Shown: in pieces, positions 1,144 through 10,172 of the stretch
Numbering within the stretch: the stretch's first letter is position 1
Layout: every line of letters begins with the position of its first letter
Source of the DNA: a virus
DNA length: 27,648 nt
Virus record (IMG/VR): IMGVR_UViG_3300010403_000046
Location: 1 to 27,648 of that record
Reading direction: 5' to 3' (one strand)
Notes under the pieces: model-generated
What the model saw: the letters and a program-made list of their open reading frames with translations, nothing else
Databases searched by the model: none
What the model was told of the DNA's origin: nothing
Made by a program: the position numbers and the translations under genes

Positions 1144-1185
1144 TTACTAGTGTATTAGAATCCGAACACCCTGTCAAGCGTGGGG

Positions 1186-1259
1186 TGTGGATAAACTATA
1201 TTTTCATTGACTTTTAATGAGTATTGGATAGTATGGTGTATACCCTACCCTTATCCACA
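1186..1259. other. Pair of perfect DnaA boxes in opposite orientation: candidate replication origin
   Basis: TGTGGATAA at 1186-1194 and TTATCCACA at 1251-1259 are exact copies of the bacterial DnaA-box consensus, facing each other across 56 bases. The right-hand box is followed at 1276-1308 by an A/T-rich, nearly G/C-free stretch that could unwind. Related TTGGATAG words at 1224 and 1272 repeat a similar pattern. Two further boxes with one mismatch lie at 1846 and 2102. The segment holds no gene. It could also be a DnaA-controlled promoter region, since promoter elements overlap it. Confidence 0.55.
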
Positions 1260-1287
1260 TTGACAAGGGTGTTGGATAGAATAAAAT
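1260..1287 (+). promoter_or_regulatory. Plus-strand sigma70-type promoter
   Basis: A perfect -35 TTGACA (1260-1265), a 16-base spacer and TAAAAT (1282-1287, 5 of 6 consensus bases). It abuts the second DnaA box. A weaker copy (TTGACT, TAGTAT) lies at 1207-1234. No plus-strand gene follows, only a hairpin and a terminator. Confidence 0.5.
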
Positions 1288-1303
1288 AAAGAAAAAGAAA
1301 ACG

Positions 1304-1331
1304 AAAAAGGCACCGCTCTAGAAACAGTGCC
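1304..1331 (-). terminator. Leftward intrinsic terminator after the 48-aa gene
   Basis: GGCAC (1309-1313) pairs with GTGCC (1327-1331); five A's at 1304-1308 make a U-tract on the minus strand. It lies 23 bases beyond the stop of the 1355-1501 gene. Confidence 0.5.
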
Positions 1332-1354
1332 AATTTCGTAAAAATACCTAGCAA

Positions 1355-1501
1355 TTAGACTGCCAACTTGGTAGTCTTTTTGCTTGAACGCTTTTTAATA
1401 GGAAAGCATTTAAAACCCTTGTCCCGTGCGTAAAGCCTTTTTCCGTTTTTCAACGTGATATAGGCGACACACGCTACAATCCTTTCTTCCGGGTCTATCA
1501 T
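1355..1501 (-). CDS. Hypothetical 48-aa basic protein
   Basis: A 48-residue frame starting MIDPEERIVACVAYITLKNG and ending in a Lys/Ser/Thr-rich tail. The first half looks like a two-strand beta hairpin ('ACVAYITLKNGKRLYARDKGFKCF'-like pattern, residues 10-33) with two cysteines; the tail is basic. No family is recognised. There is no clear Shine-Dalgarno. A perfect TATAAT on the minus strand near 1826-1831 could drive a transcript with a roughly 310-base structured leader ahead of this gene. Confidence 0.45.
   Translation of the reverse strand: MIDPEERIVACVAYITLKNGKRLYARDKGFKCFPIKKRSSKKTTKLAV
1358..1381 (+). terminator. Rightward intrinsic terminator
   Basis: GACTGCC pairs with GGTAGTC (one G-U) around AACTT, followed by five T's. 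It overlaps the 3' end of the minus-strand gene at 1355-1501. Confidence 0.45.
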
Positions 1502-1617
1502 TAAAGTCTGATTTTTTTGCGCCAATGGCGACCAACTCCACTCGAGGGTTTGGCTTTTTATAATTCCCCCGTAGAAAGAATTGACCTAAGAATTCCTTCT
1601 ATAGAGGCTATAAAAAC

Positions 1618-1770
1618 AAAACAACAGCTTCAGAGGGCAACACTTGTGGGTGGTTTCACCTTGAAACACTCCCCCGTTCTCACGGAGTCAATGACCCCGC
1701 AAGTATTACCCCCTACTGCTGTTGTTTTAAAAACGCTAGCTAATTAGTTAATAATACTTTGTGTTGCCCT
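1618..1770. ncRNA. Highly structured non-coding element with two competing folds
   Basis: Perfect pairings seen: 1618-1628 with 1718-1728 (11 bp), 1642-1650 with 1696-1704 (9 bp, one U-G on the plus strand), a hairpin GTTTCA/TGAAAC at 1653-1667, and ACTCC..CGT/ACGGAGT (a 7-bp stem with a 2-base bulge). Together they make a closed three-way junction. Two other perfect pairings, 1634-1643 with 1761-1770 (10 bp) and 1701-1708 with 1752-1759 (8 bp), interleave with these, so they are either a pseudoknot or an alternative conformation. No convincing ORF covers the segment. Strand is unresolved: it could be a plus-strand RNA or the leader of the minus-strand gene at 1355-1501. Confidence 0.5.
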
Positions 1771-1845
1771 GCCCTTTTTCCGAGAAAATGTGGCACAAAA
1801 TCTTTATTCAATTGACTAATTATATACCCGCCAAAAATTTCTGCA

Positions 1846-1854
1846 AGTGGATAA
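1846..1854 (-). other. DnaA box, one mismatch
   Basis: AGTGGATAA on the plus strand, i.e. TTATCCACT on the minus strand, differs from the consensus only in the last base. Confidence 0.4.
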
Positions 1855-1865
1855 CTTTTGCAACC

Positions 1866-1887
1866 AAAAACAGCCCTAGAAGGGCTG
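1866..1887 (-). terminator. Leftward intrinsic terminator
   Basis: CAGCCCT (1871-1877) pairs perfectly with AGGGCTG (1881-1887); five A's at 1866-1870 form the minus-strand U-tract. It would stop integrase read-through. Confidence 0.7.
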
Positions 1888-1906
1888 TTCTCGTTCCCTA
1901 TTCATC

Positions 1907-1915
1907 TGGTATGAT
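1907..1915 (+). promoter_or_regulatory. Extended -10 promoter
   Basis: TGGTATGAT matches the extended -10 pattern TGnTATAAT with one change; no good -35 is needed for this class. Predicted start near 1921, exactly where the first hairpin of the RNA begins. Confidence 0.5.
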
Positions 1916-1920
1916 GGGAA

Positions 1921-2063
1921 TGCGGAAGTGATAACTCCGCAAGTGTTGTATGGATCTGCTGTCATATCCAAACTATGACAAACGACACGCTCTACTTAGT
2001 TTTGCTCATCATACTGGTGAGGCAATTAACTAAGTAACCACTGGCCGCCTTCGGGCGGTTTTT
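1921..2063 (+). ncRNA. Candidate stand-alone structured small RNA, possibly encoding a 20-aa hydrophobic peptide
   Basis: Four structures follow the promoter: TGCGGA/TCCGCA at 1921-1941; TGTCAT/ATGACA at 1960-1980 (alternative TGGAT/ATCCA at 1951-1970); a long hairpin of 8 perfect plus about 7 further pairs at 1994-2035; and the terminator at 2045-2063. The ORF 1975-2037 would encode MTNDTLYLVLLIILVRQLTK, one transmembrane-sized segment with a basic end, and its start codon is inside the second hairpin. Small hydrophobic peptides on structured mRNAs are typical of type I toxins. No Shine-Dalgarno is visible, so a purely regulatory RNA is equally possible. Confidence 0.5.
2045..2063 (+). terminator. 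Rightward intrinsic terminator
   Basis: CCGCC, a TTCG tetraloop and GGCGG, followed by five T's: a textbook intrinsic terminator with no plus-strand gene before it other than the candidate small RNA. Confidence 0.85.
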
Positions 2064-2075
2064 GGTTGGTGCAAT

Positions 2076-2098
2076 AAAAAATAGCCTATTAAGGCTAT
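2076..2098 (-). terminator. Integrase terminator
   Basis: ATAGCC (2081-2086) pairs with GGCTAT (2093-2098); a run of A's at 2076-2081 gives the U-tract for leftward transcripts. It lies 51 bases beyond the integrase stop. Confidence 0.75.
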
Positions 2099-2101
2099 CT
2101 T

Positions 2102-2110
2102 TTATCCACT
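2102..2110 (+). other. DnaA box, one mismatch
   Basis: TTATCCACT differs from the consensus only at the last base; it lies between the integrase and its terminator. Confidence 0.4.
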
Positions 2111-2148: not shown

Positions 2149-3120
2149 CTACCTCAATCTTTTGCGCAACATGGCATTTAAGTCATCATTTTGAATCTGT
2201 GTATATTGGTATGATGAGGCTAACTGTGAATGACCTAGTGCCTCAGATATCACTGAATTATTGAATCCACGTTTTGCCAGATCTGAACCAAAATGGTGTC
2301 TTAGTGAGTGGGCATTGATGTAGGGAAGATTGGCCTTGTTAGAGTATTTACGGAATATCTCGCTGGCGGCGGACGAGGCCAATCTCACGCACTGCATTCC
2401 TGATTTTGACCTCAATCCGATAAACAAAGCATCTGTATCATCTAAATCATATGCTATGTTTTTTCTTGCATCTAACCATTTTTTGAGCGAAGTTTTGGTT
2501 TCTTTACCAAAAGGAAGTTTTCGAAATGGCCGCATACCTCTACTTTTTTCAGTTTTGATAATCAGTGTCTTTTTCTGTAAATCCACATCAGCTATATTTA
2601 ATGCTACAATTTCTCCTATCCTGGCCCCAGTATCCCACGCGATGTTTATAAGGCATCTATTGCGCATATGATTATGCTTGCCGTTCTTAGGAATCGCTTT
2701 TAATAACTTCTTGTAATTCTCCTCATTGCAAACCCTGGGCATGTTATAGGTCTTGGCTGGCATAGGGATGAGCCAATGGTCTAAGACGTGATACTTTCTC
2801 CTGCCGTAATATTCAAAGAATTTACGCAAGGCCATAGCTTTTTTGAGTACTGTCCATGGCTCAAACCCTAAATTCTTATACCACCCTATCCATTCTGTCA
2901 CATCGTTAATGTTGACATCTTCTATGCTTTTGTTCTTAACAAAGATACAAAACTGCCTTAGATCAAGGTCATACCCATCTATTCTTTTAACTTTAAGCGC
3001 CCGCCATTCGTTAAATTCCTGTAATGCTTGATAAAACTGCATAAACGTAAAAGCCATAGGTCTGACCCCATGGCTTAATACCCGTTTCCGATTTTCTCGG
3101 GCGTTGATTAAGTTTACCAT
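2149..3120 (-). CDS. int: Tyrosine recombinase / integrase
   Basis: A 323-residue member of the phage integrase (XerC/D-like) family, which breaks and rejoins DNA at attachment sites through a 3'-phosphotyrosine. An N-terminal SAM-like core-binding domain (about 25-120) is followed by the catalytic domain (about 130-323). All active-site residues are visible: Arg167 (DTGARIGE), Lys192, His271 and Arg274 (HSLRH), His297 (LGHS) and the nucleophile Tyr306, nine residues after His297 as usual. A promoter lies 64-92 bases upstream and terminators downstream, so it is a separate unit. It indicates a temperate phage, or a resolvase for a circular episome. Met22 is an alternative start. Confidence 0.93.
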   Translation of the reverse strand: MVNLINARENRKRVLSHGVRPMAFTFMQFYQALQEFNEWRALKVKRIDGYDLDLRQFCIFVKNKSIEDVNINDVTEWIGWYKNLGFEPWTVLKKAMALRKFFEYYGRRKYHVLDHWLIPMPAKTYNMPRVCNEENYKKLLKAIPKNGKHNHMRNRCLINIAWDTGARIGEIVALNIADVDLQKKTLIIKTEKSRGMRPFRKLPFGKETKTSLKKWLDARKNIAYDLDDTDALFIGLRSKSGMQCVRLASSAASEIFRKYSNKANLPYINAHSLRHHFGSDLAKRGFNNSVISEALGHSQLASSYQYTQIQNDDLNAMLRKRLR

Positions 3121-3212: not shown

Positions 3213-3255
3213 TACCTAATTAAATACTTTATCTTTTCTTTATCAGCCGCTAAAT

Positions 3256-3341
3256 CGGCCACCTCACGCCTAAAGGCGGAAATTAAAGATTACCTCATAG
3301 TTCCACAAGGGAAAACGTATGAACTTAAATTTAGGTGGCCG
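3256..3341. ncRNA. Three-way-junction structured element
   Basis: CGGCCACCT (3256-3264) pairs perfectly with AGGTGGCCG (3333-3341). Inside it are a CGCC/GGCG tetraloop hairpin (3267-3278) and a second arm, 3280-3288 with 3324-3332 (8 of 9 pairs), stacking directly on the outer stem and capped by CATA/TATG and TTCC/GGAA pairs. The 86-base element fills the gap between the lysozyme stop and the integrase promoter; no ORF is present. It could be a small RNA, a structured 3' UTR or part of attP. Strand is unknown. Confidence 0.5.
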
Positions 3342-9224: not shown

Positions 9225-10172
9225 ATGAAAAAACTTATTGCTATTGCGGCGTTGCTGTTCGTACCTCTTTTCGCTTCGGCCTCAATTGACCACAATCTCT
9301 ATTATGGGATGCGCAACAACGATGATGTCCGTGAGCTTCAAGAATTTCTTATCTCTAACGGGGATCTCGTCGGTACTCCGGCCACCGGGAACTTTCTCTC
9401 CCTGACTTTGGCGGCGGTAAAGCACTATCAAAGTACTCATAATATCTCAACCACCGGCTATGTAGGGGTTCTCACTCGCACCTCCGTAAACAGTGAACTT
9501 AATCTGGCTTTGCAAGGTTCCAATGAAGCTTCCACCCAGGAAACGGGTACTCCGCCCCCTGCGCCTATAGTCCAGAACACTACTAACGATGTAGTTTCTC
9601 AACTCCAAGCGCAGAACGCGTTGTTACAGCAGCAGTTAAATGCCCTTAACAGTCAGAACTCCACTATTCAGCAGCAACAGACTATCATTAATCAAATTGT
9701 CCAAAATACGAACCAAATTGCGCAGAATACGGCTCCTACGCCGACACCTGCACCAACTCCTACTCCAGTTCCCCCTGTCCCACCGGCTCCGATAGTATAT
9801 GTTCCAGCTCCAACCACTCCTCCGGTTATTAACTTTGAACCAGGAACTGGCAATTATTTGGGAAAAATTACAGTAAACTCTAGTTGGTCTTACACTGCTA
9901 TGGAAGTAAGATATGAAATTATTTCTTCTAATTTTTCTACCGGAGATATTCAAGTTCATGTAGGTACAGTAAGCGGCCAAGGTTCAAATTTTGGCATTAT
10001 CTCTGGATTATCCTTACCTCTAAACTCGGGAATATCTTTTTTTGCTTCTCGTCCCCTAACCGGAACTGGGTCATTTGTATTTCATCTAACCTCTGTTAAA
10101 GTCTCTAATCAGGATGGGATTATATTTAATATTCCCCTAGGCTATTCCAGCCAGACAGTTACTTTTAATTAA
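9225..10172 (+). CDS. Secreted peptidoglycan-binding protein (candidate moron)
   Basis: One of only two confident plus-strand genes. Residues 1-20 are a standard signal peptide (MKKLIAIAALLFVPLFASAS). A PG_binding_1 domain follows (about 25-92, DVRELQEFLISNGDL ... TGNFLSLTLAAVKHYQ ... TTGYVGVLTRTSVN), then a Gln/Asn-rich coiled coil (about 120-168), a Thr/Pro linker (171-200) and a beta-rich domain (205-315). The arrangement matches secreted cell-wall proteins of Patescibacteria and is not a lysis enzyme: no catalytic residues are present. With its own promoter and opposite direction it looks like a cargo gene altering the host surface. Confidence 0.85.
   Translation: MKKLIAIAALLFVPLFASASIDHNLYYGMRNNDDVRELQEFLISNGDLVGTPATGNFLSLTLAAVKHYQSTHNISTTGYVGVLTRTSVNSELNLALQGSNEASTQETGTPPPAPIVQNTTNDVVSQLQAQNALLQQQLNALNSQNSTIQQQQTIINQIVQNTNQIAQNTAPTPTPAPTPTPVPPVPPAPIVYVPAPTTPPVINFEPGTGNYLGKITVNSSWSYTAMEVRYEIISSNFSTGDIQVHVGTVSGQGSNFGIISGLSLPLNSGISFFASRPLTGTGSFVFHLTSVKVSNQDGIIFNIPLGYSSQTVTFN

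What the first reader, a model, noticed from the sequence alone, without database searches (positions are those of the whole stretch)
1907..2063. Stand-alone structured RNA unit that may encode a 20-residue hydrophobic peptide
An extended -10 promoter, four consecutive hairpins and a textbook terminator form a complete plus-strand unit of about 145 bases in a minus-strand genome. Its only ORF with sense is a hydrophobic, basic-tailed peptide whose start codon is paired in a hairpin, and the coding part is itself a long hairpin. Such a layout is known for type I toxins and for regulatory RNAs. In a temperate phage, either could serve addiction, exclusion or lysogeny control.
Basis: partly seen in the sequence, partly recalled or inferred. 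Interest (0 to 1): 0.72.

Follow-up and report, generated by a model that had tools for sequence, protein, structure and literature searches.

The report
Structured phage RNA with hydrophobic peptide
Next to the integrase gene of a phage that probably infects tiny parasitic bacteria (Patescibacteria) lies a compact 145-base RNA unit that folds unusually well and also spells out an unusually greasy 20-residue peptide, which looks like the message of a small membrane toxin, but no relative, no transcript and no antitoxin could be shown.

Summary
The anatomy is real and at the stated coordinates. The plus strand 1919-2064 folds to -51.3 kcal/mol (z -4.9; 0 of 200 shuffles) into the four hairpins described, ends in a good terminator, and has an extended -10 (TGGTATGAT, 1907-1915) in the right place, without a -35. 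It contains MTNDTLYLVLLIILVRQLTK (1975-2037), with its AUG paired. A two-way test suggests structure and peptide are both constrained: hairpin 3 is more stable than 99.95% of synonymous encodings, and only 0.01% of structure-preserving resamples hold so hydrophobic an ORF. The phage's genes lack Shine-Dalgarno sites, and this AUG's context scores at the median of real starts. Best reading (about 0.4): a self-silenced mRNA for a type I-toxin-like membrane peptide. Rivals: an untranslated sRNA, or DNA-level attachment-site features. The antisense antitoxin that defines a type I system is not shown; only a leftward terminator upstream and a weak -10 hint at one. No sequence or structural homologue was found in 42 related phage contigs or about 360-380 Patescibacteria genomes, so covariation is untestable. 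Only one relative covers the same place; it carries a different small promoter-ORF-terminator unit. Interest moderate; a new member of a known kind, unproven.

The parts
1866..1890 (-). leftward terminator-like hairpin (AACAGCCC-TTCTA-GGGCTGTT, T5) just upstream of the unit; would end an antisense transcript
   Evidence: read from sequence; 16-nt inverted repeat with the plus terminator, 1861-1876 / 2053-2068; folds as a 13-pair stem in the antisense strand; the consensus scan did not list it, because its stem absorbs the T-run
1907..1915 (+). extended -10 promoter element TGGTATGAT, no convincing -35
1921..1941 (+). hairpin 1
1943..1988 (+). hairpin 2, with inner hairpin 1960-1980 that pairs the AUG
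1975..2037 (+). 20-codon ORF MTNDTLYLVLLIILVRQLTK
1993..2036 (+). hairpin 3, overlaps most of the ORF
2008..2013 (-). weak -10-like TATGAT that could start an antisense RNA over the ORF start (speculative)
2043..2064 (+). intrinsic terminator
   Evidence: 19-24-base matches to terminators in many Patescibacteria genomes
2079..2100 (-). terminator-like hairpin after the integrase gene, read from the minus strand; the scan lists it on the plus strand, where it is also terminator-like
2149..3120 (-). tyrosine integrase, neighbour
   Evidence: PF00589 E 2.7e-31
1604..1738 (-). second, separate structured RNA element; short stretches of it recur in, or are complementary to, hairpins 1/2 of the finding

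Best explanation
A small gene of its own: RNA polymerase starts near 1921 from an extended -10 promoter and stops near 2064, giving a 145-nt, tightly folded mRNA. Its only plausible product is a 20-residue peptide with a 10-residue hydrophobic core and a basic tail, which would insert in the host membrane. Translation is kept low because the AUG sits in a stem and the reading frame itself is a long hairpin; unfolding (during transcription, or through a trigger) would release it, with toxic or growth-limiting effect, as in type I toxin systems. Shown: the anatomy, the fold, and the double constraint on fold and peptide. Inferred: transcription, translation, membrane action. Not shown: an antitoxin RNA; a leftward terminator and a weak antisense -10 leave room for one of about 140 nt covering the start codon.
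For: Fold z -4.9. Promoter element and terminator correctly spaced. Peptide hydrophobicity (3.51 over 10 residues) reached in 0.02% of dinucleotide shuffles of the unit and in 0.3% of shuffles of the whole non-coding stretch 806-2148 on both strands. Hairpin 3 (-18.0 kcal/mol) beats 99.95% of synonymous encodings, and 0.01% of structure-preserving resamples hold so hydrophobic an ORF. The phage lacks Shine-Dalgarno sites throughout, and the AUG context scores 0.88 against a median of 0.81 for real starts, in the top 10% of non-gene ATGs. Known membrane-associated type I toxins are under 60 aa, hydrophobic, usually with cationic C-terminal residues; IbsC has 19 aa, and 15 residues with at least 10 hydrophobic ones suffice (PMC8309996).
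Against: No homologue of RNA or peptide anywhere searched. No -35. No antitoxin RNA shown. A second ATG ORF as hydrophobic arises in the window in an alternative frame of a structural gene (12976, minus), so one in about 100-200 small ORFs looks like this by chance. All tests are post hoc on a site already chosen by eye. The hydrophobic core (about 10 residues) is short for a membrane span.
Confidence: 0.4

Rival explanations
1. A non-coding regulatory RNA: same promoter and terminator, but the hairpins act by pairing with phage or host transcripts (possibly with the neighbouring minus-strand RNA 1604-1738, with which it shares short complementary stretches), and the ORF is accidental.
For: Strong fold and terminator; 12-nt inverted match 1638-1649 / 1937-1948 and the 17-nt direct repeat 1691/1931.
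Against: The hydrophobic ORF is improbable given the structure. The whole-molecule duplex of the two RNAs is no better than for shuffled sequences.
Confidence: 0.28
2. No separate gene: the stems are DNA-level features next to the integrase gene (attachment-site inverted repeats, integrase or regulator binding sites) plus ordinary terminators that insulate the integrase.
For: Position beside the integrase; GTATGATGRG occurs only three times in the window, all within 310 bases, one of them being the supposed -10; TTAGTTAAT-like inverted repeats including the arms of hairpin 3.
Against: The TTAGTTA repeats are not more frequent than in shuffles (4 copies, against maxima of 2-4 in ten shuffles). 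No attachment site could be located. A terminator with correct strand and spacing after an extended -10 is not expected of an attachment site.
Confidence: 0.2
3. A complete cis-antisense type I toxin-antitoxin pair (the strong form of the best explanation): plus-strand toxin mRNA 1921-2064 and minus-strand antitoxin RNA about 2000-1866.
For: Outward-facing terminators at both ends; TATGAT on both strands; stable antisense fold.
Against: The antisense -10 has no -35 and no TG; the leftward terminator was not listed by the consensus scan; nothing tested.
Confidence: 0.12

Closest known systems
Ibs/Sib type I toxin-antitoxin loci of E. coli
   Same: 19-20-residue hydrophobic peptide; small RNA unit (the Sib length of about 140 nt is recalled, not tested)
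   Different: here the structured RNA is the sense strand and no Sib-like antisense RNA is shown; no Rfam match; peptide ends in basic residues; different host phylum
Membrane-associated type I toxins in general (TisB, Ldr, Fst, AapA1; PMC8309996)
   Same: under 60 aa, hydrophobic core, cationic C-terminus, structured mRNA with a sequestered start
   Different: no antitoxin identified, no Shine-Dalgarno to occlude, shorter hydrophobic core, no homology
Stand-alone phage small RNAs near immunity or integration regions (such as lambda OOP; from general knowledge)
   Same: own promoter and terminator, opposite strand to the surrounding genes
   Different: no target known; contains an improbable hydrophobic ORF

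Membership tests
Type I toxin-antitoxin system | short hydrophobic peptide, under 60 aa, with a putative membrane helix | tested here: met
   20 aa, best 10-residue mean 3.51 on Kyte-Doolittle; core only about 10 residues; helix not predicted by a structure tool
Type I toxin-antitoxin system | cationic residues towards the C-terminus | tested here: met
   VRQLTK end, read from the translation
Type I toxin-antitoxin system | antisense RNA antitoxin | tested here: inconclusive
   leftward terminator 1866-1890 and weak minus-strand TATGAT 2008-2013; not listed by the consensus scan
Type I toxin-antitoxin system | peptide toxic on overexpression, relieved by the RNA | not testable with these tools
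   needs bench work
Ibs/Sib and other Rfam small RNAs | match to a curated Rfam model | tested here: not met
   no gathering match in the window; the hits to the unit at E-value level (sR33, Hrs13; E above 2) are chance
Integrase attachment site (attP) | repeated arm or core sites beyond chance | tested here: inconclusive
   repeats present but not above shuffles, except GTATGATGRG x3, found post hoc
Conserved structured RNA | homologues with covarying stems | tested here: inconclusive
   no homologue in 31+11 phage relatives or 362 Patescibacteria genomes; only G524 covers the syntenic place, so covariation is untestable

The most novel reading that the evidence does not exclude
First type I-like toxin (or toxin-antitoxin pair) in a phage of Patescibacteria, in a genome whose genes lack Shine-Dalgarno sites, so that silencing must work by pairing the start codon itself rather than a ribosome-binding site. 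A small unit at the same genome position may be a recurring feature of this phage group (relative G524 has another promoter-ORF-terminator unit there).
Probability: 0.2. Interest if true: 0.65.

Novelty: new member of a known kind. Interest (0 to 1): 0.4.

Why it matters
A paper of 2025 states that type I systems were known only from Proteobacteria, Firmicutes and Tenericutes before its own candidate in Cyanobacteria (PMC12390103). A case from a Patescibacteria phage would widen that, and it would show silencing in a genome without Shine-Dalgarno sites. If it is only an sRNA or attachment-site structure, it is ordinary.

Tried and rejected
Integrase and M23 lysin as anchors in viral contigs, and integrase in genome contigs: no close relative. 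Exact 18-mers of the RNA in viral contigs: none. blastn of the unit against phages, plasmids and 380 Patescibacteria genomes: terminator hairpins and short chance matches only. Covariance model of the unit: five hits in 362 genomes with per-genome E 0.005-0.45, as expected by chance for that many genomes. Flanks of four Patescibacteria integrases of 37-41% identity: no similar RNA. Trans-pairing with the neighbouring minus-strand RNA as a whole: not better than shuffled. Peptide against Pfam, PHROGs, PADLOC and phage genomes: nothing. Absence of a Shine-Dalgarno as an argument against the ORF: dropped, because this phage's genes have almost none. Replication-origin idea from four TTATCCAC boxes: dropped, since two of them sit directly before TTGACA promoters, and the same is seen in Patescibacteria loci.

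Full report
Setting. The window is a complete IMG/VR virus record of 27,648 bases. It encodes a tyrosine integrase (2149-3120, minus), a lysis cassette (M23 peptidase, holin-like and lysozyme-like ORFs), structural genes and a terminase, nearly all on the minus strand. The nearest integrases found (37-41% identity, E at or below 1e-62, next best 1e-25) lie in genomes of the phylum of a Paceibacterota MAG, so a Patescibacteria host is likely, though not proven.

Observation. The plus strand 1919-2064 folds to -51.3 kcal/mol against a shuffled mean of -32.8 (z -4.9, 0 of 200). Among 2752 windows scanned over both strands, the one at 1921 ranks 8th after GC correction; the first is the minus-strand element near 1604-1738. 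The extended -10 is as common in the window as chance predicts (2 against 2.35); its weight comes from lying 6 bases before the first hairpin. No -35 is present.

The peptide. An ATG ORF of 15 aa or more is common in shuffles (68%), but one as hydrophobic is not: 0.02% of shuffles of the unit, 0.3% of shuffles of 806-2148 on both strands. The one comparable ORF elsewhere lies in an alternative frame of a structural gene, so the empirical background is near 1 in 100-200 small ORFs. The phage's genes lack Shine-Dalgarno sites; a start-context matrix built from 31 genes scores the ATG at 1975 at 0.88, with 0.81 the median of real starts left out one at a time. That is mild support.

Structure against peptide. 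If the peptide alone mattered, hairpin 3 could be a by-product of the code: it is not, since 0.05% of 2000 synonymous versions fold as well. If the structure alone mattered, the peptide could be a by-product: 0.01% of 20,000 sequences that keep every pair hold so hydrophobic an ORF. Both features therefore need explaining, which an mRNA with a silenced frame does. These tests are post hoc and rest on one sequence.

Relatives. Terminase (31 contigs) and portal (12 contigs) bring in relatives, but the unit is absent from all of them by blastn and by a covariance model built from this one sequence. Most are fragments that do not reach this part of the genome. Only G524 (39 kb) was seen to run from the structural genes past the lysis cassette. 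No integrase was found at that place in G524; instead, at L197 14751-14903, it has TTGACT-16-TAAAAT with an extended -10 TG, AGGAG, a 38-codon ORF with a hydrophobic middle (METKSKQLNQQKELCVMILSVGLVTKNKDHFARGGFCV) and a terminator-like hairpin, with a sub-threshold Rfam resemblance to SSRC34_2 (36.8 bits, cut-off 48). This is a positional parallel, not homology.

Mechanism. My best reading is a self-silenced mRNA of a type I-toxin-like membrane peptide (0.4). An antisense antitoxin is possible: a leftward terminator lies at 1866-1890 and a TATGAT on the minus strand at 2008-2013, which would give an RNA of about 140 nt over the start codon, but the promoter is weak and the terminator escaped the consensus scan. 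Untranslated sRNA (0.28) and attachment-site or regulator-site DNA (0.2) remain open. Membership in 'type I toxin-antitoxin system' is not claimed, because the antitoxin is unproven and toxicity untested.

Noticed in passing
window 1604-1738 (-): Most structured element of the window (z -6.15): 12-pair closing stem, 16-pair inner stem, two hairpins, U-rich tail; a minus promoter TTATCCAC-TTGCAG-TATAAT lies upstream at 1854-1821. No Rfam match, no homologue by covariance model.
   Followed up: partly
window 1149-1287: Divergent promoter pair (TTGACA-17-TACACT minus, TTGACA-16-TAAAAT plus), each closely preceded by TTATCCACA, within an inverted repeat ATCCGAACACCCTGTCAA / TTGACAAGGGTGTTGGAT; looks like a two-way control region.
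   Followed up: partly
window 1187-2109; L161: TTATCCAC boxes sit 0-16 nt before TTGACA far more often than expected (2 of 4 in the window, 2 of 20 in Patescibacteria loci, expected 0.01 and 0.06): possibly a promoter-associated element of these bacteria.
   Followed up: partly
window 536-27337, gene starts: No Shine-Dalgarno before nearly all genes; starts have an A-rich upstream context.
   Followed up: partly
L197 14751-14903: Phage relative G524 has, at the syntenic place, a unit of extended -10 promoter, AGGAG, 38-codon ORF and terminator-like hairpin, resembling Rfam SSRC34_2 below threshold.
   Followed up: partly
L160 11298, L161 11115, L162 10878: Downstream of three Patescibacteria integrases, a promoter-like site is followed by TTGAAANNNGAATA and then a hairpin with 12-15-base arms; a possibly conserved small RNA or leader.
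   Followed up: no
window 3221-3340: Another inverted repeat (GGCCACCT...AGGTGGCC) between the integrase start and the lysozyme-like gene.
   Followed up: no
window 9225-10172 (+): The only long plus-strand gene: secreted-looking protein with a PG_binding_1 domain.
   Followed up: no
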